Below, in pieces: positions 9,422 through 41,362 of a stretch of 59,259 nucleotides of DNA. How positions within the stretch are numbered: the first letter of the stretch is position 1; every line of letters begins with the position of its first letter. The DNA is from a virus, in IMG/VR virus record IMGVR_UViG_3300045738_001587, positions 1 through 59,259 of that record. One strand, given 5' to 3'. Position numbers and translations under genes: made by a program. Under the pieces are notes generated by a model that worked only from the letters and a program-made list of their open reading frames with translations, searched no databases and was not told the DNA's origin.

Positions 9422-10273
9422 GTGCCTCCCAGTCCAGAACAATATATTAGTGAACTTAAATCCATAAACATCGAAACTATCAGTCGGTGTAATATGGAAA
9501 AAGATCATTGCGACGAATGCCCTATCGTAGCAAGAAGTGAAGTTTTTGGTAACTTCATACTGCCTTTTGATGTGATAACAAACCTTGTAAAAGAACTGAG
9601 TAAGCATGGTTACAAAGGACGAACTGGGTTTCATCACTATTCTGACCCAATGGTTGATAAAAGAATATTTGACATAGTGAAAATGCATATCAAACTATGT
9701 CCTCAAGCTGAAACTCAAATTTGGACTAATGGCAGGCTTTTAAGCAAGGGAAAAGCCAAGAGGCTACTAGGCTTGGGCCTAACCCATCTCCATGTAACTG
9801 CATACACTGACGAAGAACTTATAAAGTACAAAAAATTAGCCGACGACTTGCGGAAAGAATGGCCCGATGTAGTATATGAAATATGCGGTGGCAACTTAGA
9901 CGCACGCATGTCAATTTATACGGATGAGCCTAATGACATTACTGATGGATGCCCTAGAATAACAGACCAGCTAGTAATAACAAGCAGTGGTGATATTCAA
10001 CTTTGTTGCTGGGATTGGTTACGCAAAAATGAATTTGGAAACATCAAGAAACACGGCCTGATTGAAATTTTGAAAAGTAGCAACTTTTTATCCATGAGAG
10101 ACGATCTCATGCTAGGGAAAAGGAAAAAATATTACCCATGCGATAGGTGTACGGTTCAGTATGGATATAGCCCACCGCCGCCCCCGAAAAAGAAAACAGA
10201 GGCTGGCCTTGAACCTGTTGCCCGCACCCCGTGGAAAACACTGCTCCAGCAGATAGATAAATTTTCACCATGA
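9422..10273 (+). CDS. Radical SAM/SPASM-like protein with atypical cysteine spacing
   Basis: 283 residues, GTG start. An N-terminal cluster SRCNMEKDHCDECP (about residues 22-34) gives CX6CX2C instead of the usual CX3CX2C that binds the SAM-cleaving 4Fe-4S cluster. The C-terminal half has a SPASM-like set (CCWDW, FGNI, YPCDRC) that would hold auxiliary clusters. A Pro-rich linker (SPPPPPKKK) precedes the tail. It overlaps the next glycosyltransferase gene by four bases, suggesting action on the same glycan pathway or its carrier. Function inferred; substrate unknown. Confidence 0.65.
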   Translation: MPPSPEQYISELKSINIETISRCNMEKDHCDECPIVARSEVFGNFILPFDVITNLVKELSKHGYKGRTGFHHYSDPMVDKRIFDIVKMHIKLCPQAETQIWTNGRLLSKGKAKRLLGLGLTHLHVTAYTDEELIKYKKLADDLRKEWPDVVYEICGGNLDARMSIYTDEPNDITDGCPRITDQLVITSSGDIQLCCWDWLRKNEFGNIKKHGLIEILKSSNFLSMRDDLMLGKRKKYYPCDRCTVQYGYSPPPPPKKKTEAGLEPVARTPWKTLLQQIDKFSP

Positions 10274-11136
10274 AGATCATAACAAGTACACATTACAACA
10301 GGCCAGCCTGTACTAAGATGATGCTAGATCATCTAGCAGAATGTGAAGGGATAGAGGACTACAAGATAATCTGCTGTGTTGAACCTGTAAATAATATTAT
10401 ACCAGACCTAATTGAATCGCACCCCTTAAATACGGAGCTTGTGGTAAATGATAGACTTTTGGGCTTATGGGAAAACAAGCATAAGGCCTTGTCTCTGGGG
10501 TTTAATGAGTCAGATTACGTCATACACCTAGAGGACGACATACTTTTATCTCAAGATGGTTTGCGAATGTTTGAATTTTGCTACCCCTTGAAGGACGAGA
10601 AAAGATTTTTCACTGTGTCTGCGTACAATAACCCAAAGGACGACAGCCATCTCAATGAGGATGCCAAAAGAAAAGTCGATGAACGGGCTGCATATCACCC
10701 ATGGGGATGGGCTATTTGGCTTGATAGGTGGAAAGAATTGAAGGAAAACTGGAGTGGTCAAGATACGGAGCTATCCAATAAATATCGAGGCGCTAGACTT
10801 GAGGCTTATCCTATACTTTCTAGAATCCAGAATGTGGGGCATCTAAAAGGGGAGTATTCATCAAGCCTAACAAAGAAAGACATTACGAAAGTAAAGACAT
10901 TGCTTGGAAGTGCAAATACAAAATACGACAGGTCGGAGCTAGAATATTTTGACCAAGCAGGAGATGATGAGCCATACGAGAACTCCGCTGGACGAGAAGT
11001 AATAAAGCTAAGTGATGACTATGTGAGGACAAGACATCCTCCAGCTTATGATGAGCAGTATGTTAAATTTTGGGCTAAAGATTACGACATGTCAAACACT
11101 AACTTTTATTTTGATGAGGGCATGAATATTGGATAA
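10270..11136 (+). CDS. GT-A glycosyltransferase-like protein
   Basis: 288 residues. The N-terminus (ITSTHYNRP) and the metal-binding-like YVIHLEDDILLSQDG around residues 82-96 fit a GT-A (family 2 or similar) transferase. The HPWGWAIWLDRW segment further on is typical of acceptor regions in this type. Start and stop overlap both neighbours. Confidence 0.75.
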   Translation: MKIITSTHYNRPACTKMMLDHLAECEGIEDYKIICCVEPVNNIIPDLIESHPLNTELVVNDRLLGLWENKHKALSLGFNESDYVIHLEDDILLSQDGLRMFEFCYPLKDEKRFFTVSAYNNPKDDSHLNEDAKRKVDERAAYHPWGWAIWLDRWKELKENWSGQDTELSNKYRGARLEAYPILSRIQNVGHLKGEYSSSLTKKDITKVKTLLGSANTKYDRSELEYFDQAGDDEPYENSAGREVIKLSDDYVRTRHPPAYDEQYVKFWAKDYDMSNTNFYFDEGMNIG

Positions 11137-12043
11137 CAACTTTTTATTATCAAGATTTCCAGAAGACTTATTTCCTCCCCTCGCAGAAGGCCGAGCGAAC
11201 TACTATAGCAAGACCATCAAAGGGGGAGGCGTGTGTTCGCGCTCTAATGTAGTCATAACAGGCCTGTGTAGAAACATTATCGACGTACTACCTCACGCGG
11301 CTGCTAGGCTGCGCAGGACGGCAGAATTATTCAAAGAGGCTAAGATACTAATATATGAAAACGACTCTGACGACGGGACAACTCAAGCCCTAAGAACAGA
11401 ATTTGAGGGCGAAAACAATGTCATACTCAAGCAGGATAGAACCGGACACAAAATGTTCGATAAGACTAGGGAGCTAGAAAGGCCTCTATACCTTGGAAGG
11501 TTACGCCAAAGGTGTAACGGCTGGATAAAAGACATAAATAAATTTTTCCCAATCGACTATATCATCGTGATAGACTTAGACCTAGATGGAGGCTGGTCTT
11601 ACGATGGAATCCTGAATAGCTTTGGTTACGATCACTGGTCTGCCATGACCGCCAACGGCTTTGAGTACAAAGAAAAGAAGATAGAAAGCGAACAAGGCGT
11701 TGAATACCTAGAGTATGAACGTCTGTTCTTTGACACTTTTGCTTATAAGAAATATGGAAGCTGGGAAGTATTAGATTCAGAAGAAACCAATAGGTTAAGG
11801 TTCGAGAGAGGAGAAGAGCCTTTTAGAGTTTACTCAAACTTCAACGGTGTTGGAATATACAAATATGAGGACATGATTGACTGTGTTTTCGGGGCGCACC
11901 AAAATCCAGATGGAACAGTTATCAACGAGTGGTCTTTCATGCACAATCAAATGGTCAAACGTGGGTGTAACATATACCTGAACCCCAGCCTAATCACTCT
12001 ATATTCCCCAACAGAATACAGCACACACATTGAGCAGGAATAA
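11129..12043 (+). CDS. Glycosyltransferase-like protein (CAP59/GT69-like)
   Basis: 304 residues, TTG start overlapping the previous gene. Features are VITGLCRNI near residue 43, IYENDSDDGT, and IIVIDLDLDGGW around residue 145 as the DxD metal site. This order recalls the CAP59-type mannosyltransferase family. The assignment to GT69 is tentative; a transferase is likely. Confidence 0.65.
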   Translation: MDNNFLLSRFPEDLFPPLAEGRANYYSKTIKGGGVCSRSNVVITGLCRNIIDVLPHAAARLRRTAELFKEAKILIYENDSDDGTTQALRTEFEGENNVILKQDRTGHKMFDKTRELERPLYLGRLRQRCNGWIKDINKFFPIDYIIVIDLDLDGGWSYDGILNSFGYDHWSAMTANGFEYKEKKIESEQGVEYLEYERLFFDTFAYKKYGSWEVLDSEETNRLRFERGEEPFRVYSNFNGVGIYKYEDMIDCVFGAHQNPDGTVINEWSFMHNQMVKRGCNIYLNPSLITLYSPTEYSTHIEQE

Positions 12044-28112: not shown

Positions 28113-28471
28113 ATCCAGAAGACTTAAGTATTGAAGAACTCCAAGAGCTTCTTAGGAGCAAAATTGAAGAGAGCGAAATTGAAGAGCCTAGCGAGACTGT
28201 TATTGATGACGACTTTACGGTTACAAGAACAGACTCAGTGAATGAGGCAAATAAACAGAAGGTCGAGGCCAAGGATAACACATGGATTGACGAAGGAGAA
28301 CACAAGGACGTAGAGACTCCTGAGTATAAACCAACGACCAGAAATAGGCTCAAGCCCGAGTCGCACAAGGTTAATAGGGTCTGCCACATTTGCGGAAAAA
28401 AGTTTGAAATATCGCCAAGCCTAATCAGCGGTGAATTTACGCGATGCGATAATTGCACAGGAAGAAAATAA
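28109..28471 (+). CDS. Acidic protein with C-terminal zinc ribbon
   Basis: 120 residues: acidic, probably disordered N-terminal 80 residues, then a CHICGKKFEI ... RCDNC zinc-ribbon at the end. Sits immediately upstream of the helicase gene. It may be a helicase- or primase-associated DNA binder; no family assigned. Confidence 0.55.
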   Translation: MNPEDLSIEELQELLRSKIEESEIEEPSETVIDDDFTVTRTDSVNEANKQKVEAKDNTWIDEGEHKDVETPEYKPTTRNRLKPESHKVNRVCHICGKKFEISPSLISGEFTRCDNCTGRK

Positions 28472-28472
28472 G

Positions 28473-29960
28473 ATGGATCAGAATCTAGCAGACGCTGGGT
28501 CAGAAAGAGCCGTTCTTTCGGCCCTGTTTCAGTACGGTATAGAAGCCTACGTTGAAGTCTCTGACATTATAAGCAGCGAAACATTTGGCAGCACTAATAA
28601 TCAAATACTATATAAGTGCGTTGAAAAAGTAATAGAGAGTAATTCCGAGGTTGACATCCCTTCAATACTTTCAGCGGCCTCGCAGATGGGTCACTCGGAT
28701 CGAGTTGAAAGCAAGCAGGAGTTGCAATACATAAAGTCCTTGTTCGATTTTCCTGTCAACAAGGATAACGTGATAAGCTTTGCTCTACAGATAAAGAAGT
28801 ACGAATTTGCCAGAAGGATTAAAAAGCTTACAACAAGAATTCATAAGGATATGGATGGTGTCACCGGTGGCGAATCTATCAACGATATCATATCAATGCT
28901 AGAAGAGCCTGTTATGGATTTCCTCAGGGAAGACGACGCCGGAGAGAGGCCAAAGAAAATTGGCGAAGATGCGTTTGAATACCTAGAATTCCTACAGGAA
29001 AATAAATGCGATATAATAGGCATATCAACAGGCTTCAACAGGTACGACCAAGCGATTGGCGGTGGTCTAAGAAGAAAATGTGTGGACTTAATAGCGGCCA
29101 GACCCAAGGTGGGCAAAAGCGTATTCGCTGATAATGTTGCCATCAACGCCTCATCAAGAGGAATACCAGTTTTGGTTCTAGATACAGAGATGTGTAAAGA
29201 AGACCATCTGAATAGGATTATCGCAAACCTGAGCGGAGTTCCAATCAATGAGGTTTCTACTGGTCAGTTTGTTGATGATGACGAAAAAAATCAGAGAGTC
29301 CACGAGGCAGTTGAGAAAATAGAAGATATACCCTACAGTTACGTCAGCGTTGCTGGCAAGCCATTTGACCAGATATTGAACATTATTAAAAGATGGATCA
29401 TACAAGACGTAAAGCTAGATGAGAACGGAAAAACAAATGACTGTGTGGTTATTTATGATTACCTAAAGCTCATGTCATCTGGCGCTATAACAAACAATAT
29501 TCAAGAGTATCAAGCTCTTGGTTTTCAAATCACATCTCTGCACAATCTATGCGTCAAATATGATTTTCCGTGTCTGTCGTTTGTACAACTTAACAGAGAT
29601 GGAATTACTAAAGAATCAACAGACGCAGTAAGTGGCTCCGATAGGCTCATTTGGCTATGCACTTCATTTTCCATATTCAAATCCAAATCTCCAGAAGAGC
29701 TTGCGGAGGATGGCCCTAGTGCAGGCAATAGAAAGCTAGTGCCAGTTGTAGCTAGGCATGGCGCTGGTCTGTCCGATGGCAATTATATAAACATGCGTAT
29801 GCACGGAGAATTTGCCAAGCTTGACGAATTGCGAACCAGAAATGAGTTTAGAACGCAGCCAGTAGACGACACAGGGCTTATAGACGAGCAGGAATTAGTT
29901 AATGTTAATGAGAGTATAAAAAATGGAACTGAAGAAGATCAAAAAGCTCCTTGGGAATAA
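28473..29960 (+). CDS. Replicative DNA helicase, DnaB-like
   Basis: 495 residues. An N-terminal domain begins with GSERAVLSALF; the RecA-type motor domain has GGGLRRKCVDLIAARPKVGKSVFA (Walker A region, about residues 190-213), LVLDTEM, VVIYDYLKL (Walker B) and SFVQLNRDG. Hexameric helicase that unwinds at the fork and recruits primase. ATG 28473 is the first in-frame start after the previous stop. It overlaps the primase gene. Confidence 0.93.
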   Translation: MDQNLADAGSERAVLSALFQYGIEAYVEVSDIISSETFGSTNNQILYKCVEKVIESNSEVDIPSILSAASQMGHSDRVESKQELQYIKSLFDFPVNKDNVISFALQIKKYEFARRIKKLTTRIHKDMDGVTGGESINDIISMLEEPVMDFLREDDAGERPKKIGEDAFEYLEFLQENKCDIIGISTGFNRYDQAIGGGLRRKCVDLIAARPKVGKSVFADNVAINASSRGIPVLVLDTEMCKEDHLNRIIANLSGVPINEVSTGQFVDDDEKNQRVHEAVEKIEDIPYSYVSVAGKPFDQILNIIKRWIIQDVKLDENGKTNDCVVIYDYLKLMSSGAITNNIQEYQALGFQITSLHNLCVKYDFPCLSFVQLNRDGITKESTDAVSGSDRLIWLCTSFSIFKSKSPEELAEDGPSAGNRKLVPVVARHGAGLSDGNYINMRMHGEFAKLDELRTRNEFRTQPVDDTGLIDEQELVNVNESIKNGTEEDQKAPWE

Positions 29961-30936
29961 CCTAGACTTGGTTCTTTCCGAGCTTGAGATTGAGTATCAA
30001 AAAAACGGTGACAACCTCACCTGTCCATGCCCAGTCCACGAAGGCAGTGACAACCCAAATGGTTTCTCCTTTTCTGTTGATCGGCAAATCTGGGGGTGCT
30101 GGACTAGGGGTTGCCACCAAGAATTTGGTAATGATATACTCGGACTCATACGTGGGACATTATCCATTAAGACGGGAGAGGAAGTGGGATTCCCAAAAGC
30201 GTTGCGGTGGGCGTGTCGGATTCTTAATGTTGATAGCAAAGACGTTCAGGTAAATAAAGAAGAAGAGCCAGACGAGTTTGTCAAGCTGGTGAATATTTTA
30301 TCCCAGAAAGACCCGTCCCACGAGGATTCGTGCGCCATCATAGACTGCGATGTCTCACATCCGTCAGATTACTTTTGCTCAAGAGGTTTTTCAGAAGACA
30401 CCTTGCTGCACTTTGAGGTTGGTGATTGCTTGCAGAAAAAATCCTCTATGGTCAACAGGGCAATAATACCAATACATAACTCAGGCGGAGACAAAATTGT
30501 ATCCTATATTGGTAGGTCTGTCAGGGATTATGTCAAGCCAAAATTCTTGTTTACCAGCGGGTTCAATAAGACGAAGTATTTGTACAACTATCATAGAGCA
30601 AAAGAAAAGATTCATGAGACCTCCTGCGTGTTCTTGACGGAGGGGCAAGGCGACGTTTGGAAATTGTACGAAGCTGGAGTAGAAAATGCAGTCAGCATCT
30701 TCGGGAAGTCATTAAGCTTTTTTCAAAAAAGTATGCTAGAGAAAAGCGGCGCAACCAAACTGGTTGTTTTGACAGACAACGATCAGGCGGGTAGAGAGTC
30801 AAAGGTTAAAATTCAAAGAGAAATGAGCAGGATGTTCAAAGTTATTTTCCCCAGAATGTCCAAAAAAGATATAGGCGATATGACGGCTAAACAAATAAAA
30901 GAAGACATATTACCGCAACTGGAAGGCATGTTTTAA
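29923..30936 (+). CDS. DNA primase, DnaG-like
   Basis: 337 residues. The N-terminal zinc site has CPCPVH and CWTRGCHQ. A TOPRIM domain follows with LTEGQGDVWKL and VLTDNDQAGRES (the acidic catalytic residues). Makes RNA primers; no C-terminal helicase-interaction domain is obvious. It overlaps both helicase and kinase genes. Confidence 0.9.
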   Translation: MELKKIKKLLGNNLDLVLSELEIEYQKNGDNLTCPCPVHEGSDNPNGFSFSVDRQIWGCWTRGCHQEFGNDILGLIRGTLSIKTGEEVGFPKALRWACRILNVDSKDVQVNKEEEPDEFVKLVNILSQKDPSHEDSCAIIDCDVSHPSDYFCSRGFSEDTLLHFEVGDCLQKKSSMVNRAIIPIHNSGGDKIVSYIGRSVRDYVKPKFLFTSGFNKTKYLYNYHRAKEKIHETSCVFLTEGQGDVWKLYEAGVENAVSIFGKSLSFFQKSMLEKSGATKLVVLTDNDQAGRESKVKIQREMSRMFKVIFPRMSKKDIGDMTAKQIKEDILPQLEGMF

Positions 30937-31682
30937 TGGTTAACATAATAGGGATATCAGGCAAGAAACAATCCGGCAAGAACACTATGGCTAACTATCT
31001 GCATGGAGAAATCCTAAAGAGAACTGGTACTGTGTCAGATTTTGAAATAGATGCAAATGGGTCTCTCATAATTACCACAAGCGTAGACGGAGACGTTGAA
31101 CACGGCGTTTTAGATGTCACCAGAAGAGACTCTCAGTTTACAAGCTATGCCCACGCGCACATGTGGCCCTATGTAAAGCTTTATAGCTTCGCGGACGGAC
31201 TCAAGCAAGTGTGCATGGATTTTTTCGACCTTTCATTTGAGCAGGCATACGGCACAAACGAACAAAAGAATACAGCGTGCCAAGTTTTTTGGGAAGACTT
31301 ACCAACCAAGACTAGCAACAAGGGAAACATGACTGCGCGCGAACTGTTGCAATATTTTGGTACAGATATAATGAGGAAGATGCTCCAAGACGTATGGGTC
31401 AACCATACAATAAAAACAATAAACCGCGAACAAAGCGGATTGGCAATCATCGCAGACATAAGGTTTCCAAATGAAGTAGAGGCTGTCAAGAGAAACAAAG
31501 GCAAGGTCGTAAGGCTAACTAGGGAACTAATCGAAGATAGCCACAGCAGCGAAGTAGCCCTAGACAAAGCAAACTATGATTGGGATAATTTTGATTTTAT
31601 AATCAACAACTCTAAAGGCAGCATAACAAACTTTTGCAAAGAGATAGATAAATTGTTTAACCAATTGGAGGTGGTATGCTAG
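30936..31682 (+). CDS. Deoxynucleoside monophosphate kinase-like
   Basis: 248 residues with an N-terminal P-loop GISGKKQSGKNTMA, then LYSFADGLKQVC, a LLQYFGTDIMR segment and AIIADIRFPNEVEA. This matches the phage T4 gp1-type dNMP kinase layout. It would convert dNMPs to dNDPs for synthesis of phage DNA. Confidence 0.82.
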   Translation: MVNIIGISGKKQSGKNTMANYLHGEILKRTGTVSDFEIDANGSLIITTSVDGDVEHGVLDVTRRDSQFTSYAHAHMWPYVKLYSFADGLKQVCMDFFDLSFEQAYGTNEQKNTACQVFWEDLPTKTSNKGNMTARELLQYFGTDIMRKMLQDVWVNHTIKTINREQSGLAIIADIRFPNEVEAVKRNKGKVVRLTRELIEDSHSSEVALDKANYDWDNFDFIINNSKGSITNFCKEIDKLFNQLEVVC

Positions 31683-32689
31683 TCACTTATATAAGAAGCT
31701 CTAGCTTCAATAACTATTCCTACTGTCAGATGCAGTATTTCCTAACGTATACGCTGGGACATCAATCAAAATCTGGCAAAAAGGCCCAACTTGGGACTAT
31801 AGTACATAAAGTTATGGAAGTCTTGGCAGGATGCCAGCACTTAGTACAAAAAATGAAGAAGATGCTGCTTATTGACGACGCTCTTGGTGAAATTAAATTC
31901 ACGAAGAAAAAGCTAGCAAGCGACGAATTTGTTAATGATATATTGCTAAGGAGCTACGACTGGTATACTAAAAAGTGCGACCATAAATACACAAAAGCAG
32001 ACTATAAATTCTGCAATGAAACCACTTGGGAGGCACTTAATCATAACGACGGACTGTTTGACCCAAGAAACAGAAAGATAGTGGCTGCTGAACCACACTT
32101 TGATATAGTTATAGATGAGCCGTGGGCCAAATATGACTACACCCTGCCAAACGGAGAAAAGCTAGAAGGACAGCTAGCAATAAAAGGAACAATTGATCTT
32201 GTAACTGAGGTAGAGGATGGTATAATTGAAGTAGTTGACTGGAAGACTGGAAAAAGGCTAGACTGGGCCACGGGGGAAGAAAAAACATACGAAAAACTGT
32301 GTGAAGACCCACAACTGCTACTGTACAACTATGCTATCTCCAAGCTATTCCCAGAGTACAAGCAGTCCATAATGACTGTCTTTTTCATCAGGGATGGAGG
32401 CCCATTTTCAATGTGCTTTGATAGCAAGGACAGGGAAAAATTTATGGAAATGCTAAAGCTTAAATTTCAGCAAATTAGCAATAACCAAAAGCCTCAGCCC
32501 CTGTCTCAAACTAGAAATCACTGGAAGTGTACTAAGCTTTGCCACTTTTACAAGAACAAGTGGCCGGGAACAGACCAGAATATGTGTATATATACAGAGG
32601 AACACCTTAAGAAACACGGAATGGAAAAAACCGTGGAAGAGTGTACGGCCAAAGGATTTAGCGTGGGCCATTATGAGGCTCCGGGGTAG
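31676..32689 (+). CDS. PD-(D/E)XK exonuclease with probable 4Fe-4S cluster
   Basis: 337 residues of the Cas4/AddB-like nuclease group. The nuclease core has GTIVHKVME, GTIDLVTEV, and EVVDWKTGK (DxK catalytic motif), then DPQLLLYNYA. One N-terminal Cys (SYCQMQY) and a C-terminal WKCTKLC then NMC set match the four-cysteine iron-sulphur staple of this group. It would resect or process DNA ends in recombination. Another candidate client for the phage Fe-S genes. Confidence 0.83.
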   Translation: MLVTYIRSSSFNNYSYCQMQYFLTYTLGHQSKSGKKAQLGTIVHKVMEVLAGCQHLVQKMKKMLLIDDALGEIKFTKKKLASDEFVNDILLRSYDWYTKKCDHKYTKADYKFCNETTWEALNHNDGLFDPRNRKIVAAEPHFDIVIDEPWAKYDYTLPNGEKLEGQLAIKGTIDLVTEVEDGIIEVVDWKTGKRLDWATGEEKTYEKLCEDPQLLLYNYAISKLFPEYKQSIMTVFFIRDGGPFSMCFDSKDREKFMEMLKLKFQQISNNQKPQPLSQTRNHWKCTKLCHFYKNKWPGTDQNMCIYTEEHLKKHGMEKTVEECTAKGFSVGHYEAPG

Positions 32690-32698
32690 AGGAAAGAT

Positions 32699-33238
32699 AT
32701 GATTGAGATAGAAATTACAGAGGAAATGAAGAAGAGGGCATGGGCCAAGTCACGGGAAATGGGAGTCATAAAGAACTCCATTATGAGTGGCGATGGCAAT
32801 ATAGCAGGGTTCTTAGGCGAAGAAGTAGCAAATTCAGTCATAAAAGGTGAGATCAACAACACTTATGACTACGACATCATTACCAAAGATGGTATTAAAT
32901 ATGATGTCAAGACCAAGAGATGCACTTCGCCCCCCAAGCGCTACTATGATTGCTCTGTTGCTAATTTCAACACAAAACAAAAATGTGACAGATACGTTTT
33001 CGTAAGAATAGAAAACAAAAACAATAGATGGGGAAGAGCTTGGGTTCTTGGCTGGCTTGAACACGATGAGTATTTTAGAAAAGCTCGCAAGCTAACCAAG
33101 GGCGAGGTTGACCCTTCTAACAACTTTGTTGTGCGTGCTGACTGTCACAATGTCGCAATATCAGAATTAACTAACTTCACGGGAGAAGAAGATGCTAGAC
33201 TTCATTTACGACAGGAGAAACTTTCTAAGAATAGGTAG
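32699..33238 (+). CDS. PD-(D/E)XK nuclease-like protein
   Basis: 179 residues. GFLGEEVANSVI followed by KYDVKTKRC forms the E...D-x-K pattern of restriction-endonuclease-like folds; the YDCSVANFNTKQKCDRYVF segment after it also fits. Activity not certain. The 3' end overlaps the Tat-exported gene by 47 bases. Confidence 0.65.
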   Translation: MIEIEITEEMKKRAWAKSREMGVIKNSIMSGDGNIAGFLGEEVANSVIKGEINNTYDYDIITKDGIKYDVKTKRCTSPPKRYYDCSVANFNTKQKCDRYVFVRIENKNNRWGRAWVLGWLEHDEYFRKARKLTKGEVDPSNNFVVRADCHNVAISELTNFTGEEDARLHLRQEKLSKNR

Positions 33239-34439
33239 CATTGGAGCCGGGATGAGCGCAGTTGGTCTATCTGACTACGCCTTTTCTCAAGATATAGCTC
33301 TGGGCTACAAAGACAAGACCGTCGTCTGGGTATGGCTAGGTGGAGGGCCGACACAGTTTGAAACTTTCCACGCACCCAACGACACGGTTCCCTCAGAGTG
33401 GCAGCCGGTAAACGGGGCTATTCACGACCCCAAGACTAACATAACCCTTGGGGCTGACTGGAAAGAGCTTTCCAAGCATACTAGCAAGTTAAATGTGGTC
33501 AATTCATTTAGCCACAAAGATTCCTCTCACCGTCAGGGGACTCATTTCGTTATGACTGGACATTACAACGCAGATAGAACGACTACCTCTATGGCAGAGC
33601 ATCCGTCTTTTGGGTCTATCGTGTCTGCTTGTTATGGCCCGAGCAACCCAGACAACGGGGTGCCCACCTATGTTAAGCAGGGCAAGATCGAGGGAGACGA
33701 AGGAACTTGGCTTGGAGGGGCATATAAACCCTTTGACCCATCAAACAAAGATAATCTAACCCCACGCATAGAGCTTTCGCGGTTTACAAGCAGAAAAGAC
33801 TTACTAAACGCAATAGACGGAATAAGAATTTCCGGCAACGGGGCCGAGTCCGTAGAATTTTATAAGGGACAAGCTTATGATGTGATTCTCGGCTCGGCAA
33901 AAGACGCCTTTGACCTTGAAAAAGAAGACCCGAAGACCCACGAACTCTATGGGACAGCCGCCATCGGGCAGCAGCTTCTTTTAGCAAGAAGGCTTGCCGA
34001 ATATGGCACAAGGTTTGTAACTATCCATTATGGGGGATGGGACATGCATGGCAACATCTCTAAGGCCATACAGGGCAAAGTTCCGCCCATAGATAAAGCT
34101 ATTTCTGGCTTCCTTCAAGACGTTTGGGATCGTGGTCTAAGTGAAAAAATTATGCTTGTCGTGACGGGCGAATTTGGAAGAACTAAAATCAATGCCAACT
34201 CTGGCAGGGATCACTGGCCTGCAATTACTCCTATGCTCATGGCTGGTGGACAATATCATTCTGGCAGAACCATTGGCACATCAGACCGATCCTACAGCCC
34301 GTTGGACAATCCAGTTGGGCCGCTTGACCTTCAGGCCACACTGTTTGACCATTTTGGAATAGACAAGGACATACAAAGAGTAGACAACGGTGGACGACCA
34401 AGATATTTACTCGAAGGAGAGGCGAAGGTAATCCTATGA
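33192..34439 (+). CDS. DUF1501-family protein with Tat signal
   Basis: 415 residues. The start at 33192 has GGGAG six bases upstream and gives a twin-arginine signal DRRNFLRIGSIGAG; the next ATG would remove it, so the 47-base overlap with the previous gene is probably real. The mature part has VWVWLGGGPTQFETF, HGNISKAI and VTGEFGRTK, characteristic of DUF1501, a sulfatase/phosphatase-like fold domain. DUF1501 is greatly expanded in Planctomycetota and relatives. Phage copies are not something I know of. It would be exported folded to the periplasm or cell surface. Confidence 0.9.
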   Translation: MLDFIYDRRNFLRIGSIGAGMSAVGLSDYAFSQDIALGYKDKTVVWVWLGGGPTQFETFHAPNDTVPSEWQPVNGAIHDPKTNITLGADWKELSKHTSKLNVVNSFSHKDSSHRQGTHFVMTGHYNADRTTTSMAEHPSFGSIVSACYGPSNPDNGVPTYVKQGKIEGDEGTWLGGAYKPFDPSNKDNLTPRIELSRFTSRKDLLNAIDGIRISGNGAESVEFYKGQAYDVILGSAKDAFDLEKEDPKTHELYGTAAIGQQLLLARRLAEYGTRFVTIHYGGWDMHGNISKAIQGKVPPIDKAISGFLQDVWDRGLSEKIMLVVTGEFGRTKINANSGRDHWPAITPMLMAGGQYHSGRTIGTSDRSYSPLDNPVGPLDLQATLFDHFGIDKDIQRVDNGGRPRYLLEGEAKVIL

Positions 34440-35248: not shown

Positions 35249-36202
35249 ATGATTAAAGTTGGCGTAGTCGGATATGGCACAATAGGAAAACGTGTGGCAG
35301 ACGCTGTATTGTTACAAGATGATATGGAGCTTGCTGGCGTCACAGCAAATACCTACAACTACAAAATAGAATCTGCCATCAGGAAAGGCATTTCTATATT
35401 CCCGATAGAAAAAATACATCTGCTTCTCAATGAAGTTGATATAGTTGTAGACTGCACCCCAAAGGGAGTAGGAGCCGACAATAAAGAGACATACTCTGAA
35501 GCTGGCGTGAAGGCCATATTTCAAGGTGGAGAAAAGCCCGACGTAGGGTTTAGCTTTGTGGCCCAATGTAACTACGACAAGGCCGTTGGAAAAGATTTCA
35601 TTCGAGTAGTTAGTTGCAACACAACTGGATTATGCAGGACGCTGAAGGCGTTAGATTGTAACTATAACATAGACAAGGTACACGCCACGATGATAAGAAG
35701 GGCCGCCGACCCTTGGGATATATATCACGGGCCCATTAATGCCCTTGTTCCACACTTGGTGGTTCCATCACATCATGGGCCGGATGTTAGAACGATCCTG
35801 CCCAAGTTAGAAATATTCACAACTTCCATATCTGTCCCTACCACGTTGATGCATATGCACAGCATAGCGGTTGACCTAAATACTGCTCCCACCGTTGAAG
35901 AAGTTGTAGATTTGTTTCAGAATACAACAAGGGTTCGCGTCGTGCATAATTCCGATGGAATAAGATCGACAGCCGAAATCATGGAGTACGCCAAAGACCT
36001 TGGTAGAGACAGGGGAGACATGCCAGAGGTGTGTGTGTGGAGCGATACTATCGGAGTGTGGGGAAAGAAGTTGTTATATATACAAGCGATTCACCAAGAA
36101 AGCGACGTTGTTCCAGAAAACATCGATGCAATTAGAGCGGCGTTTGATTTATACCCAGCCGCTAGTAGTATACAAAAGACAAACAAAAGTTTAGGCATAT
36201 AA
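35249..36202 (+). CDS. Glyceraldehyde-3-phosphate dehydrogenase, archaeal (type II)
   Basis: 317 residues. It matches the archaeal type II GAPDH family closely: GYGTIGKRVADAV, DIVVDCTPKGVGA, FQGGEKPDVG, the catalytic VVSCNTTGLCRT, the IRRAADP and SHHGPDV segments, VPTTLMHMH, STAEIMEYAKDLGR and HQESDVVPENIDAIRA. From memory the archaeal enzymes are about 20 residues longer, with the gap after residue 48, in the nucleotide-binding half. It would oxidise glyceraldehyde-3-P (or a related aldehyde-phosphate) with NAD(P). This type is rare in bacteria and I do not know of a phage copy. Confidence 0.93.
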   Translation: MIKVGVVGYGTIGKRVADAVLLQDDMELAGVTANTYNYKIESAIRKGISIFPIEKIHLLLNEVDIVVDCTPKGVGADNKETYSEAGVKAIFQGGEKPDVGFSFVAQCNYDKAVGKDFIRVVSCNTTGLCRTLKALDCNYNIDKVHATMIRRAADPWDIYHGPINALVPHLVVPSHHGPDVRTILPKLEIFTTSISVPTTLMHMHSIAVDLNTAPTVEEVVDLFQNTTRVRVVHNSDGIRSTAEIMEYAKDLGRDRGDMPEVCVWSDTIGVWGKKLLYIQAIHQESDVVPENIDAIRAAFDLYPAASSIQKTNKSLGI

Positions 36203-37085: not shown

Positions 37086-38720
37086 ATGGATTGGGCTCCG
37101 CTCTGCAACTATACTCACTATAGCTTACTCAAGGGCTTTTCTAAGCCATCCCAGCTCGCCCAAAAATGCAAAGAGAACGACTACAAGGCCTGCGGAATTG
37201 CAGACTATAAATCAATCTCTGGGGCCGTGAGCTTCTTTCAGTCGTGCATCAAGCATGGCATCAAGCCAATTATTGGCTGTTCTTTTGATGGATTCACGCT
37301 CTTTGCTAAAAGCAAATCAGGGTGGCTCGATCTCATTCAACTTGTATCCTCTATAGGAGAAGACGGGAACCTTAATAGCCACGTTTTAAATGATGTGTGC
37401 CGCCGTGGGAATCTTATTTCTATCTCCGAAACTGAGCAAACCTCACCCATAAAGGGTGAAGACTTTTACGCTAAGACGCCAGCGTTGATGGACACATATT
37501 ACACAGAAAAGAAGGACGCTCCGCTGCATAGGGTTTTGCTTTGCTCGAAATTAAAAACAACGCTCCCGAAAATCAACAAAGCTCTTTCCAAAAATGAAGA
37601 CTTTGAGTTTAGGGAGTTCTTTGAACGCAACGACTTTCATCTGAGAGATTCGGTAGAAATATGCGAAATCCTCACTGAGGACAGAGAGCTAAATGTCAAA
37701 AAAATTATTGACAAGTGCGAGGACTACGACATCCTAAGCAAGCCAATGCTTCCAAAGTTCACAACCCCCACCGGAGCGTCAGAAGAAGAATATTTGAAAG
37801 AACTATGCAGGCACGGCTGGGTCGAACTTCTAGCAGAAAACGGAAAGGTTACCAACGACGAAGACAAAGAAAAATACCTAGAAAGATTCACAGAGGAATT
37901 CAGGGTAATTAAAGAAGCAAATCTCTTTGGTTATTTCTTAATTGTTAGAGATATCATTAGCTTTGTTAATAGCAAGGGCTGGCTATCAGGGCCGGGAAGA
38001 GGCTCTGCCGCCGGGTGCTTAATTTCCTATCTGGTGGGCATTACAAAGATTGACCCAATTGAGTACGGGCTTTTGTTTGAGAGGTTCTATAATAGTGGTA
38101 GAAACACAGATGACCATGTCTCCCTGCCGGACATTGATATTGATGTTCCCGGTAACAAAAGAGATGAGATCATCGAATACTTAAAAGACACATACGGGAA
38201 GCACAATGTTAGCCAGATGGTCACCTTTGGCAGACTGCAAGGCAGAAGCGCCATAAAAGAAATACTAAGAATTAACGAGGCTTGCTCCTTTGGGGAGATG
38301 AACGAAATCTCTAAAAGCATACCAAATGAATCCGACGTATCTGACCAGCTTCAGGCTATGGACGAAGAGGACAGGTCTATAATCAAATTCGCTCTCCTTG
38401 ACAACCCAGAAGAACTGAGAGATTATTGCTATGTAACAGAAAAGGGCAGGCTAGAAGGAGATTACGCAGAATACTTTGAGCAGGCCATCAGGATTGAGGG
38501 TACGTTTAAAACTCAAGGTAAGCACGCCGCAGGAATTGTTATATCGTCTGACCACCTATATAATGTTTGTCCTATGGTAAACCAGAAAAGCGGATCAGAA
38601 AAAATCGCAGGATTAGAAATGGCCGACCTCGAAAGCTTGGGCCATGTCAAGTTTGACATACTAGGTATTAATCTCCTAGATAAGATTATGAAAATTGAGG
38701 AACTATTAAATGTCGTATAG
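37086..38720 (+). CDS. dnaE: DNA polymerase III alpha, N-terminal part
   Basis: 544 residues. The N-terminal PHP region (CNYTHYSLLKGFS, CGIADYKSI, PIIGCSFDG) is followed by the polymerase palm: GPGRGSAAGCLISYLVGI, the catalytic pair LPDIDIDVPG, and the third Asp in HVKFDILGIN. The protein then stops after 12 more residues. The remaining palm and fingers are in the second gene at 39380, so neither half alone can polymerise. The stop lies inside the exonuclease gene. The two halves must associate, or be joined by an unseen process. Confidence 0.92.
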   Translation: MDWAPLCNYTHYSLLKGFSKPSQLAQKCKENDYKACGIADYKSISGAVSFFQSCIKHGIKPIIGCSFDGFTLFAKSKSGWLDLIQLVSSIGEDGNLNSHVLNDVCRRGNLISISETEQTSPIKGEDFYAKTPALMDTYYTEKKDAPLHRVLLCSKLKTTLPKINKALSKNEDFEFREFFERNDFHLRDSVEICEILTEDRELNVKKIIDKCEDYDILSKPMLPKFTTPTGASEEEYLKELCRHGWVELLAENGKVTNDEDKEKYLERFTEEFRVIKEANLFGYFLIVRDIISFVNSKGWLSGPGRGSAAGCLISYLVGITKIDPIEYGLLFERFYNSGRNTDDHVSLPDIDIDVPGNKRDEIIEYLKDTYGKHNVSQMVTFGRLQGRSAIKEILRINEACSFGEMNEISKSIPNESDVSDQLQAMDEEDRSIIKFALLDNPEELRDYCYVTEKGRLEGDYAEYFEQAIRIEGTFKTQGKHAAGIVISSDHLYNVCPMVNQKSGSEKIAGLEMADLESLGHVKFDILGINLLDKIMKIEELLNVV

Positions 38721-39387
38721 AGATTATATTGTTTTTGACTTTGAAACTGGGTCTAGAAACCCGCAAAAAACACAGCCGACACAGATCGCCGCACTAGCTC
38801 TGGACGGCAGGAACTTTAGGCTTAAGGGAACTTTTAATAGTGAAATTAGGCCAATCATAGACGACGAAAAAGCCATTAAGGCTGGCTTAGACCCGTTGGA
38901 AGATGAAGCCCTCAGAATCACAGGCAAGACGAGGAAAGCGTTAGCTAAAGCCCCGCTGCCCAAAACGGTATGGAAAAAGTTTGAAAACTTTGTAAACCAA
39001 TACAACTGGAAGGGCACACAGTTTTTTGCTCCCATTCCAGCGGGGTTTAATATTATTGGTTTCGACATGATTATCGTAAATAGAATGTGTGAACAATATG
39101 GCTCATACGACAAAGAAAGACAGCAGCAAAAGATATTTAACAAGATTTACAAAGTTGACATGATGGACAATATGTTTATGTGGACTGAGGGAGACCCGTC
39201 CATCAAGTCTATAAGCATGGACTCATTAAGAGAACGAATGGGCCTAAGCAGCGAAAACGCCCACGATGCCCTACAGGACGTTAAAGACACGGCAAATATT
39301 ATGATTAAATTTATGAAGACTCACAGGGCCGTGTATCGTAACTTAAAAATTGACAAGGCTTTTGCGGACGGCGAATTATATGTCTAA
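38710..39387 (+). CDS. 3'-5' proofreading exonuclease, DnaQ-like (DEDDh)
   Basis: 225 residues. ExoI DFETG with the D and E, ExoII in GFNIIGFDMIIV, ExoIII NAHDALQDVKDT (His and Asp). It supplies proofreading, like the epsilon subunit. It overlaps the 5' half of dnaE by 11 bases and the 3' half by eight, so the three genes are translationally coupled and the exonuclease physically separates the polymerase coding regions. Confidence 0.9.
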   Translation: MSYRDYIVFDFETGSRNPQKTQPTQIAALALDGRNFRLKGTFNSEIRPIIDDEKAIKAGLDPLEDEALRITGKTRKALAKAPLPKTVWKKFENFVNQYNWKGTQFFAPIPAGFNIIGFDMIIVNRMCEQYGSYDKERQQQKIFNKIYKVDMMDNMFMWTEGDPSIKSISMDSLRERMGLSSENAHDALQDVKDTANIMIKFMKTHRAVYRNLKIDKAFADGELYV

Positions 39388-40951
39388 AGAAATAGATTAT
39401 AAGTGCGAAGAAACATGGAGCTTGTTCCACGAAGGAAGAACTAAAGGTGTTTTCCAGCTTGAGAGTAACCTAGGAAAGTCTTGGTCTAGAAAGCTCAAGC
39501 CCAGCAACATAGAGGAACTCGCGGCGCTGGTTGCCCTTATCAGGCCGGGATGTCTCAAGGCTATATCCAACGGAAAGTCTATGACACAAAGATACATCGA
39601 CAGGAAGAATGGATCGGAAAAGGTTGAGTATCTACACGACGCACTGGAGGACATTTTAAAGCCCACTTATGGTGTTCTTGTATATCAGGAACAATCTATG
39701 AGAATAGTCCAAAAACTTGCTGGTTTTGACCTCAAAGATGCCGACATACTACGAAAGGCTATCGGGAAAAAGAAAGCTGGCTTGATGGCAAAAGTAAAGC
39801 GGTCTTTCCTAAAGGGCGCAGCCAGTAAAGAAATTGTTACAAGTGAAGAAGCCGAAGAAATCTTTAGTTGGATTGAAAAGTCCAGCAGATACTCGTTCAA
39901 TAAGTCTCACGCCGTAGCATATGCAATATGTTCCTTCTGGAGTGCCTTCTACAAGGTTCATCACACTGAACAATTCTTTCTTGCTTATCTGTATCATGCC
40001 AACGAAAAACAGGACACACACGAAGAAGTATATGAATTGGTTTCCGACGCGAAGCTTTTTGATATAAAAACCAAGACTCCAAACATAACAAACTTCTCTG
40101 AAAAGTTTAATATGTCAAATGGATCAATATATTTTGGCGTCAAGGACGTTAAGTCGCTGACAGGAAAGACCGGCGACAAGGCCATAGCCGCCGTCAAAGA
40201 GCTTTCGTCCCAGCTAGGCAAGAGCGCTAAGAGCTTCAGTTGGCTAGATATACTCATCAACCTAACCCCCAAAATAAACGCCACGGCGTTCAAAGCTCTG
40301 GCTTCCATTGGATTTTTCAGAGGGTTCAAAGATAAGATAACAAGGAACAGAGCCCTTTATGAGTACGAGATATACAGGAGTCTAACCAAGGCCGAAGTGC
40401 GATGGATTGAAGAAAACTACAGAATCCTTAAGTGGAGAAGTTTAATCGACTGCCTGATTGACTTGGCCCCAGTAAAGAAGGAAGGCGGCGGCACTAGCAA
40501 GGAAGCTAGGTCAGAGGCAGTAAGAAATGAAATACATTTTCTCGAAAACCCACCTTACGACCTTTCCGATGACCCAAGCTGGATTATAGAACAGGAAGTA
40601 AAGTTTTTGGGATGCCCCGTTTCAATGTCAAAAATAGAAGCGGCAGATATTTCTGGCGCTAATACCACCTGTAAAGAAATAGCCGAAGGGAAAAATGGAA
40701 AAAGCCTTCTGGTGGCTGGAAACATAAAAAGAGTATCAAACTATAAGATTAAAAAGGGGAAATCAAAAGGAGAATATATGTCCTTTCTAACCATAGAAGA
40801 CGACACATGCACCTTAGATAGTGTCGTTATTTTCCCAGATTGTCGCAAAAAGTTTCAATATTCTTTATATGAAGGGAATAACTTACTGTTTAGCGGATCT
40901 GTCTCAAAAGAAGATAATTCCCTAATTGTTAATAACATTTTTGAGATTTAG
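39380..40951 (+). CDS. dnaE: DNA polymerase III alpha, C-terminal part
   Basis: 523 residues. It begins at the exact point where the first half ends relative to bacterial DnaE: ETWSLFHEGRTKGVFQLES, ALVALIRPGC, PTYGVLVYQEQSM, the fingers block IGKKKAGLMAKVK, and SRYSFNKSHAVAYA. A C-terminal OB-like region is seen from about residue 440 (LLVAGNIKRVSNYKIKKG). No clear intein sequence at either junction. ATG 39380 overlaps the exonuclease stop. Confidence 0.92.
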   Translation: MSKEIDYKCEETWSLFHEGRTKGVFQLESNLGKSWSRKLKPSNIEELAALVALIRPGCLKAISNGKSMTQRYIDRKNGSEKVEYLHDALEDILKPTYGVLVYQEQSMRIVQKLAGFDLKDADILRKAIGKKKAGLMAKVKRSFLKGAASKEIVTSEEAEEIFSWIEKSSRYSFNKSHAVAYAICSFWSAFYKVHHTEQFFLAYLYHANEKQDTHEEVYELVSDAKLFDIKTKTPNITNFSEKFNMSNGSIYFGVKDVKSLTGKTGDKAIAAVKELSSQLGKSAKSFSWLDILINLTPKINATAFKALASIGFFRGFKDKITRNRALYEYEIYRSLTKAEVRWIEENYRILKWRSLIDCLIDLAPVKKEGGGTSKEARSEAVRNEIHFLENPPYDLSDDPSWIIEQEVKFLGCPVSMSKIEAADISGANTTCKEIAEGKNGKSLLVAGNIKRVSNYKIKKGKSKGEYMSFLTIEDDTCTLDSVVIFPDCRKKFQYSLYEGNNLLFSGSVSKEDNSLIVNNIFEI

Positions 40952-41053: not shown

Positions 41054-41362
41054 ATGAATCTTTGTTCTTTTACCGGGTACTTAACCGAAGACCCGAAGCT
41101 CTCTAAACCAAACGGAGTGAGCCTGATTGAGTTCACTCTAGTTGTCTACACTTACAGAACAACCAAAAGCACGGGAGAGAAGAGCCGTATTCCGACCTTC
41201 TTGAACTGCGAGGCTTGGCATACTGGTGCTGACACCATAGCAAAGCTTGCCACCAAGGGGACAAAGATGCATGTTCATGCTTCTGCCAAAAACCCCTCAA
41301 AAGGCGCTAAAGGCACCATTTTTAGAGTAAACGAATTTGACTTCTGTGGCATAGAAGAGTAA
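41054..41362 (+). CDS. ssb: Single-stranded DNA-binding protein (second copy)
   Basis: 102 residues. OB-fold blocks FTGYLTEDPKLS, SLIEFTLVVYTY, PTFLNCEAWHTGADTIA and KGTKMHVHASAKNP follow the SSB order. There is no typical acidic tail ending in PF, though the last residues IEE are acidic. Clearly diverged from the copy at 7296, so the two may be specialised. Confidence 0.88.
   Translation: MNLCSFTGYLTEDPKLSKPNGVSLIEFTLVVYTYRTTKSTGEKSRIPTFLNCEAWHTGADTIAKLATKGTKMHVHASAKNPSKGAKGTIFRVNEFDFCGIEE

What the first reader, a model, noticed from the sequence alone, without database searches (positions are those of the whole stretch)
37086..40951. DNA polymerase III alpha split exactly around a proofreading exonuclease gene
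The first half carries the PHP region, the LPDIDIDV pair and the third catalytic Asp, and ends 12 residues after VKFDILGIN. The second half begins in the stretch that follows in bacterial DnaE and has the fingers motifs. A complete DnaQ-like gene sits between them and overlaps both. The active site must be rebuilt from two chains. I see no intein sequence at the junctions, so this differs from the split-intein DnaE of cyanobacteria.
Basis: partly seen in the sequence, partly recalled or inferred. Interest (0 to 1): 0.75.

Follow-up and report, generated by a model that had tools for sequence, protein, structure and literature searches.

The report
Phage replicative polymerase in two chains
A large group of uncultured viruses of bacteria makes its main DNA-copying enzyme as two separate protein chains, with the gene for the proofreading enzyme always placed between the two half-genes, so a core replication enzyme probably works there without ever being one chain.

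Summary
Window 37086-40951 encodes a DnaE-type polymerase III alpha chain in two genes (544 and 523 aa) around a complete DEDDh exonuclease gene (225 aa). The genes overlap by 11 and 8 bases, in three different frames. The break lies in the loop between palm and fingers, matching about E. coli DnaE 575/585. All three catalytic aspartates are on the first chain, the fingers on the second.

It is no artefact. 216 distinct environmental viral loci carry the same N-exonuclease-C order, with no fusion of any two parts. On a tree the split form is one clade (100/100) apart from one-chain DnaE. In 15 long contigs of the clade (101-206 kb) it is the only recognised replicative polymerase. No intein lies at this junction, although the same tests detect true split inteins at other sites in several relatives.

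Best explanation: an ancient, permanent gene fission. The two chains and the exonuclease, translated next to each other, assemble non-covalently into a Pol III core. Assembly and activity are inferred, not shown.

Split Pol III alpha is already known in some jumbo phages (distant genes, minimal form), and Cellulophaga phages break it elsewhere. This is therefore a new variant of a known kind: clade-wide, complete, and always with the exonuclease between.

The parts
37086..38720 (+). N half of DNA polymerase III alpha (544 aa): degenerate PHP domain, thumb, palm with D349, D351, D524
   Evidence: PF02811 1.2e-14, PF07733 1.3e-68; AF2 pLDDT 88.7, pTM 0.86; Foldseek to 2hpi E 1.3e-36 and 2hnh TMq 0.76; maps to E. 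coli DnaE 7-568
38710..39387 (+). DEDDh 3'-5' exonuclease (225 aa), DnaQ/epsilon-like; D10, E12, D119, H185, D190 invariant in 37 sequences
   Evidence: PF00929 2.7e-12; phrog_192 'DNA polymerase exonuclease subunit' 1.4e-22; alignment A2
39380..40951 (+). C half of DNA polymerase III alpha (523 aa): fingers, HHH-like region, C-terminal OB-like fold
   Evidence: PF17657 4.2e-47; AF2 pLDDT 88.3, pTM 0.77; Foldseek to 4iqj E 1.2e-22; maps from E. coli DnaE 589 on
38710..38720 (+). 11-base overlap of N-half stop and exonuclease start, GAGGA upstream of the ATG
   Evidence: sequence; overlaps of -8/-11 are the commonest in relatives, and 82% of exonuclease starts have a Shine-Dalgarno-like motif against 12% of internal ATGs
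39380..39387 (+). 8-base overlap of C-half start and exonuclease stop
   Evidence: sequence; short overlaps are common in relatives
41054..41362 (+). single-strand binding protein gene just downstream; conserved neighbour of the module
   Evidence: PF00436 3.9e-09; found downstream in 176 of 216 loci
28431..32689 (+). upstream replication genes: DnaB helicase, primase, dNMP kinase, PD-(D/E)XK nuclease
   Evidence: found upstream in 108, 143, 166 and 178 of 216 loci (loci hold at most about 6 kb of flank)

Best explanation
An ancestral phage DnaE gene was broken once, in the loop between palm and fingers, with the proofreading exonuclease gene between the pieces. The arrangement was then kept across a large, uncultured phage clade. 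Each gene has its own start and stop; where they overlap, translation is probably coupled, so the chains are made together. The N chain (PHP-thumb-palm, all catalytic aspartates) and the C chain (fingers to OB) fold separately and join without a peptide bond. The exonuclease joins them, probably at the PHP side as epsilon does in E. coli. Shown: gene anatomy, conservation, single clade, no intein, no fusion, no other recognised polymerase. Inferred: assembly, activity, coupling, docking site.
For: Anatomy. 216 distinct loci with N-E-C and 0 fusions. N chains end within -5 to +23 aa of the window's end, and C chains start with no more than 40 aa extra at the first ATG in all but one case, where that frame holds an upstream gene. 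Both halves alone give confident models matching solved Pol III alpha. Active-site residues of palm and exonuclease are invariant. Split clade is monophyletic 100/100 against one-chain phage and E. coli DnaE. N, E and C distances correlate (r 0.88-0.93), and dS is saturated while dN is 0.07-0.21. In 15 contigs of 101-206 kb: one N and one C half each (two in one contig), 0 family A, 0 family B polymerases. In the window's subclade the PHP metal ligands are gone, so the exonuclease is the only evident proofreader.
Against: No binding, activity or protein data; the clade has no cultured member in the collection searched, so expression of both halves is inferred from selection only. Distance correlation also follows from shared ancestry. 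About two thirds of the relatives have other genes or gaps at the N-exonuclease junction, so overlap coupling is not universal. No multimer prediction was possible. The long contigs are not known to be complete.
Confidence: 0.86

Rival explanations
1. The halves are joined by protein trans-splicing through a split intein at the junction, as in cyanobacterial DnaE.
For: The same genes carry split inteins at other sites in relatives.
Against: No Hint/intein match in the window's halves, while the same Pfam models detect the split inteins of relatives at E about 1e-5 to 1e-8 and a cis intein at 9e-14. The N chain ends 20 residues after the catalytic D524 and the C chain starts at once with DnaE sequence; there is no room for the two intein parts. 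None of 164 loci measured has room for an intein N part at the junction.
Confidence: 0.02
2. The halves are joined at RNA or translation level (intron, ribosome hop or frameshift across the exonuclease gene).
For: Neighbouring overlapping frames make frameshifting conceivable.
Against: Rfam scan of the window finds no group I or II intron, only three tRNAs. N and C frames differ and the whole exonuclease gene lies between. Each gene has its own start; the extra genes between the halves in relatives vary in number and length.
Confidence: 0.03
3. One half works alone, or pairs with the host's alpha chain, and the two halves do not form one enzyme.
For: Phages can recruit host replication proteins; no DnaN-type clamp was found in 15 long contigs, so some host parts are probably used.
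Against: Both halves are always kept together, and each keeps full conservation of its polymerase motifs. The phage has its own helicase, primase and SSB.
Confidence: 0.06
4. Decayed gene or assembly artefact.
For: A single metagenomic contig could carry errors.
Against: 216 distinct loci from many metagenomes with the same order, invariant catalytic residues, saturated dS with low dN.
Confidence: 0.01

Closest known systems
Split minimal Pol III alpha of group 2.2 jumbo phages (Iyer et al. 2021, PMC7824862)
   Same: Phage C-family polymerase in two chains without a described intein; the authors infer that they rebuild one enzyme.
   Different: There the two genes are far apart, the enzyme is reduced to a catalytic and a template-binding part, and a family B polymerase is present. 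Here the halves are neighbours around an exonuclease, keep PHP and a C-terminal OB-like fold, and no family A or B polymerase was found.
Cellulophaga phages phi13:1/phiST (Cbastvirus), two-gene DNA polymerase III alpha
   Same: Two adjacent genes encode one DnaE; no intein is annotated.
   Different: The break is at about N-half residue 342/347, before the catalytic DxD, with no exonuclease between; palm and fingers stay in one chain. It lies outside the split clade on the tree.
Cyanobacterial split-intein DnaE
   Same: DnaE made from two genes.
   Different: Joined by trans-splicing and broken inside the fingers (own knowledge). Here there is no intein and the break is at the palm/fingers loop. 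Some relatives carry a split intein at FNK|SH, next to the cyanobacterial site.
Fractured genes (Dassa et al. 2009; paper not held, cited in PMC6892783; content from own knowledge)
   Same: Phage replication gene cut in two with a free-standing gene between; relatives show exactly this, with a Vsr-like endonuclease in L035.
   Different: At the present junction the gene between is the proofreading exonuclease, with no split intein.
Methanothermobacter thermautotrophicus PolB in two polypeptides (PMC7776575)
   Same: A replicative polymerase naturally encoded by two polypeptides.
   Different: Family B, archaeal, unrelated fold.

Membership tests
Bacterial DNA polymerase III alpha, DnaE type (family C) | palm with three catalytic aspartates | tested here: met
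   D349, D351, D524 invariant in 37 sequences; PF07733 complete
Bacterial DNA polymerase III alpha, DnaE type (family C) | fingers domain | tested here: met
   PF17657 4.2e-47; Foldseek to 4iqj/2hpi
Bacterial DNA polymerase III alpha, DnaE type (family C) | PHP domain | tested here: met
   PF02811 1.2e-14; in the window metal ligands are lost and the domain is shortened
Bacterial DNA polymerase III alpha, DnaE type (family C) | C-terminal OB fold | tested here: inconclusive
   PF01336 below its cut-off; the strand-rich end of the model has weak matches to OB proteins
Bacterial DNA polymerase III alpha, DnaE type (family C) | one polypeptide; TIGR00594 over its 434-bit cut-off | tested here: not met
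   Halves score 340.6 and 268.3 bits apart; separate genes in every one of 216 loci
DnaQ/epsilon-type DEDDh proofreading exonuclease | D-E / D / H-D catalytic residues | tested here: met
   D10, E12, D119, H185, D190 invariant
DnaQ/epsilon-type DEDDh proofreading exonuclease | binds the alpha chain and proofreads | not testable with these tools
   gene position and PHROG name only
Cyanobacterial split-intein DnaE | intein N and C parts at the broken ends | tested here: not met
   no intein match in the window, with positive controls in relatives
Fractured genes | split intein with free-standing endonuclease at the break | tested here: not met
   not at this junction; met at N306 or C175 in L035, L048, L070, L252, L337
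Split minimal Pol III of group 2.2 jumbo phages | minimal catalytic parts, distant genes, family B polymerase present | tested here: not met
   adjacent genes, PHP and OB-like parts present, 0 of 15 long contigs with family B

The most novel reading that the evidence does not exclude
A whole, widespread, uncultured phage clade replicates with a permanently two-chain Pol III alpha whose proofreading exonuclease is always encoded between the halves. It is the clade's only replicative polymerase and comes from one ancient fission. In some members further split inteins cut the same genes, so that one working polymerase would be built from up to four translated pieces, two joints made by trans-splicing and one left unjoined (L048).
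Probability: 0.75. Interest if true: 0.68.

Novelty: new variant of a known kind. Interest (0 to 1): 0.6.

Why it matters
Replicative polymerases are normally single catalytic chains. A clade-wide, long-kept two-chain form broken exactly between palm and fingers gives a natural test of whether a family C polymerase needs that covalent link. The two permanent halves are also interrupted by split inteins in relatives, so permanent gene fission and split-intein breakage can be compared in the same genes. It warns annotators that DnaE in such phages will be missed or called partial.

Tried and rejected
Intein at the junction: none in the window, and no room for one. Introns: none in Rfam scans of the window or of the interrupted relatives; the interruptions proved to be inteins. 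One-chain or fused relatives: none among about 326 loci, apart from the differently broken Cellulophaga phage. Cultured members through the exonuclease: 7 weak hits (23.8-26.7% identity), not next to a polymerase in the two looked at. dN/dS ratio: not computable because dS is saturated. Promoter and terminator scan: near shuffle level. A search with the most divergent C half (L210) found only itself. Paper searches for an earlier description of this arrangement found none. The fractured-genes paper itself is not held.

Full report
1. What is there. The window is a 59,259-base viral record. On + it encodes a 544-aa protein (37086-38720), a 225-aa protein (38710-39387) and a 523-aa protein (39380-40951), in three frames, overlapping by 11 and 8 bases. 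Pfam finds PHP and the complete PF07733 domain in the first, an RNase_T exonuclease in the second and the DnaE fingers in the third. NCBIfam TIGR00594 is matched at model positions 198-571 by the first (best stretch) and 583-883 by the third.

2. Where the break lies. Against E. coli DnaE the N half ends at about residue 575 and the C half begins at about 585; the missing part is a variable loop. The catalytic aspartates D349, D351 and D524 are on the N chain. By the published domain borders of E. coli alpha (own knowledge: palm to about 560, fingers from 561) this is the palm/fingers border. AlphaFold2 folds each half alone with high confidence (pLDDT 88.7 and 88.3), and Foldseek matches both to solved Pol III alpha (E 1.3e-36 and 1.2e-22).

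3. Conservation. Scans of IMG/VR with the exonuclease, with both halves and with divergent relatives gave about 320 loci. By profile search 287 loci read N-E-C and none of the split clade has any two parts fused; 216 are distinct by exonuclease DNA. Divergent members are down to 30-40% identity to the window's parts. N chains all end, and C chains nearly all start, at the same place. Palm and exonuclease active-site residues are invariant. dN is 0.07-0.21 with dS saturated, and pairwise distances of N, E and C correlate at 0.88-0.93. On a tree with eight one-chain phage DnaE, E. coli DnaE and the two-gene Cellulophaga DnaE, the split clade is one group with 100/100 support: one fission fits the data.

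4. Setting. Upstream are DnaB helicase, primase, dNMP kinase and PD-(D/E)XK nuclease, downstream SSB and glycosyltransferases, kept in most relatives. In 15 contigs of 101-206 kb there is one N and one C half each (two in one contig), and no family A polymerase, family B polymerase or DnaN-type clamp. The contigs may be incomplete, so absence is not proven. The likely reading is that this is the clade's replicative polymerase and that a clamp, if used, is the host's or unrecognised (inference).

5. Translation. A Shine-Dalgarno-like motif stands before 66% of N, 82% of exonuclease and 39% of C starts, against 12% of internal ATGs. The common overlaps are -8/-11 at N-exonuclease and -20/-8/-11/-4 at exonuclease-C. 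Each gene is therefore probably started on its own, with coupling where they overlap. In about two thirds of loci other genes or gaps lie between N and exonuclease: putative DNA-binding or endonuclease-like ORFs, unknown small ORFs and others.

6. Not an intein, but inteins nearby. The window's halves have no intein match. Pfam finds intein domains in relatives at other sites, a positive control. Split inteins with a free-standing ORF between (Vsr-like in L035) sit at FNK|SH of the C half in L035, L048, L070, L252 and L337, and at GPGRG|SA of the N half in L048; L227 has a broken-frame intein at that same N site; L010 has a cis intein at RPG|CLK. These sites are in conserved motifs, whereas the permanent break lies in a variable loop. 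That speaks against the permanent break being an old intein site, though it cannot exclude it. Contig G003 holds two modules about 80% alike, one with and one without the C-half intein.

7. PHP decay. Divergent split lineages (L184, L187, L199, L205, L210, L216, L238) keep the usual PHP metal motifs (PLHxH, TDHG, [ST]GHxGS, DSHY/DAHY). The window's subclade has lost them along with about 80-90 residues of the domain. The exonuclease is then the only evident proofreader there (inference).

8. Verdict. Real, conserved and most likely functional as a two-chain polymerase with a separate exonuclease. The kind (split Pol III alpha in phages) is known from Iyer et al. 2021 (PMC7824862) and from Cellulophaga phages, with other break points and gene arrangements. 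PHROG profile coordinates also suggest other break points in cultured phages. This is a new variant, notable for its spread, completeness and constant N-exonuclease-C order.

Noticed in passing
L035 7193-8480; L048 1696-2924 and 5498-6764; L070 7840-9136; L252 about 10,000-11,207; L337 4319-5631: True split inteins, each with a free-standing ORF (Vsr-like in L035) between, break the halves again at FNK|SH or GPGRG|SA; L048 has both, so its polymerase comes from four translated pieces.
   Followed up: yes
L010 6856-7617 (also in L100): Cis intein with an HNH endonuclease part in the fingers at RPG|CLK.
   Followed up: partly
L336 and L337 (206-kb contig of L238): Two N-E-C modules about 80% identical in one contig, one with and one without the C-half split intein; could be a chimera of two phages.
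   Followed up: partly
between N half and exonuclease in 54 of 216 loci, e.g. L077 3287-3499: Conserved small protein of about 71 aa (SVIFSGCS...YQVWSD motif) without any Pfam match; absent from the window.
   Followed up: partly
C-half N terminus of divergent relatives, e.g. L205, L242, L210, L238: Extra 25-40 aa with a CGC motif and a later Cys, perhaps metal-binding; unexplained.
   Followed up: no
window 37086-37700 against L184/L187/L205: PHP metal ligands lost in the window's subclade but kept in divergent split lineages.
   Followed up: yes
window 33192-34439 and 35249-36202: DUF1501 protein and a GAPDH-like protein with a DapB-like N part in a phage genome, just upstream of the polymerase; unusual cargo.
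   Followed up: no
15 contigs of 101-206 kb (G001-G015): No DnaN-type sliding clamp found although the polymerase is Pol III-like.
   Followed up: partly
L333 3571-6126 (Bacillus phage vB_BpsS-140): An 852-aa DnaE-like ORF is not annotated in the public record.
   Followed up: no
L239-L243: N-E-C phage contigs sit in bacterial MAGs of GTDB (SAR202, Flavobacteriales, Chitinophagia, Alphaproteobacteria): binned phages or host hints.
   Followed up: no
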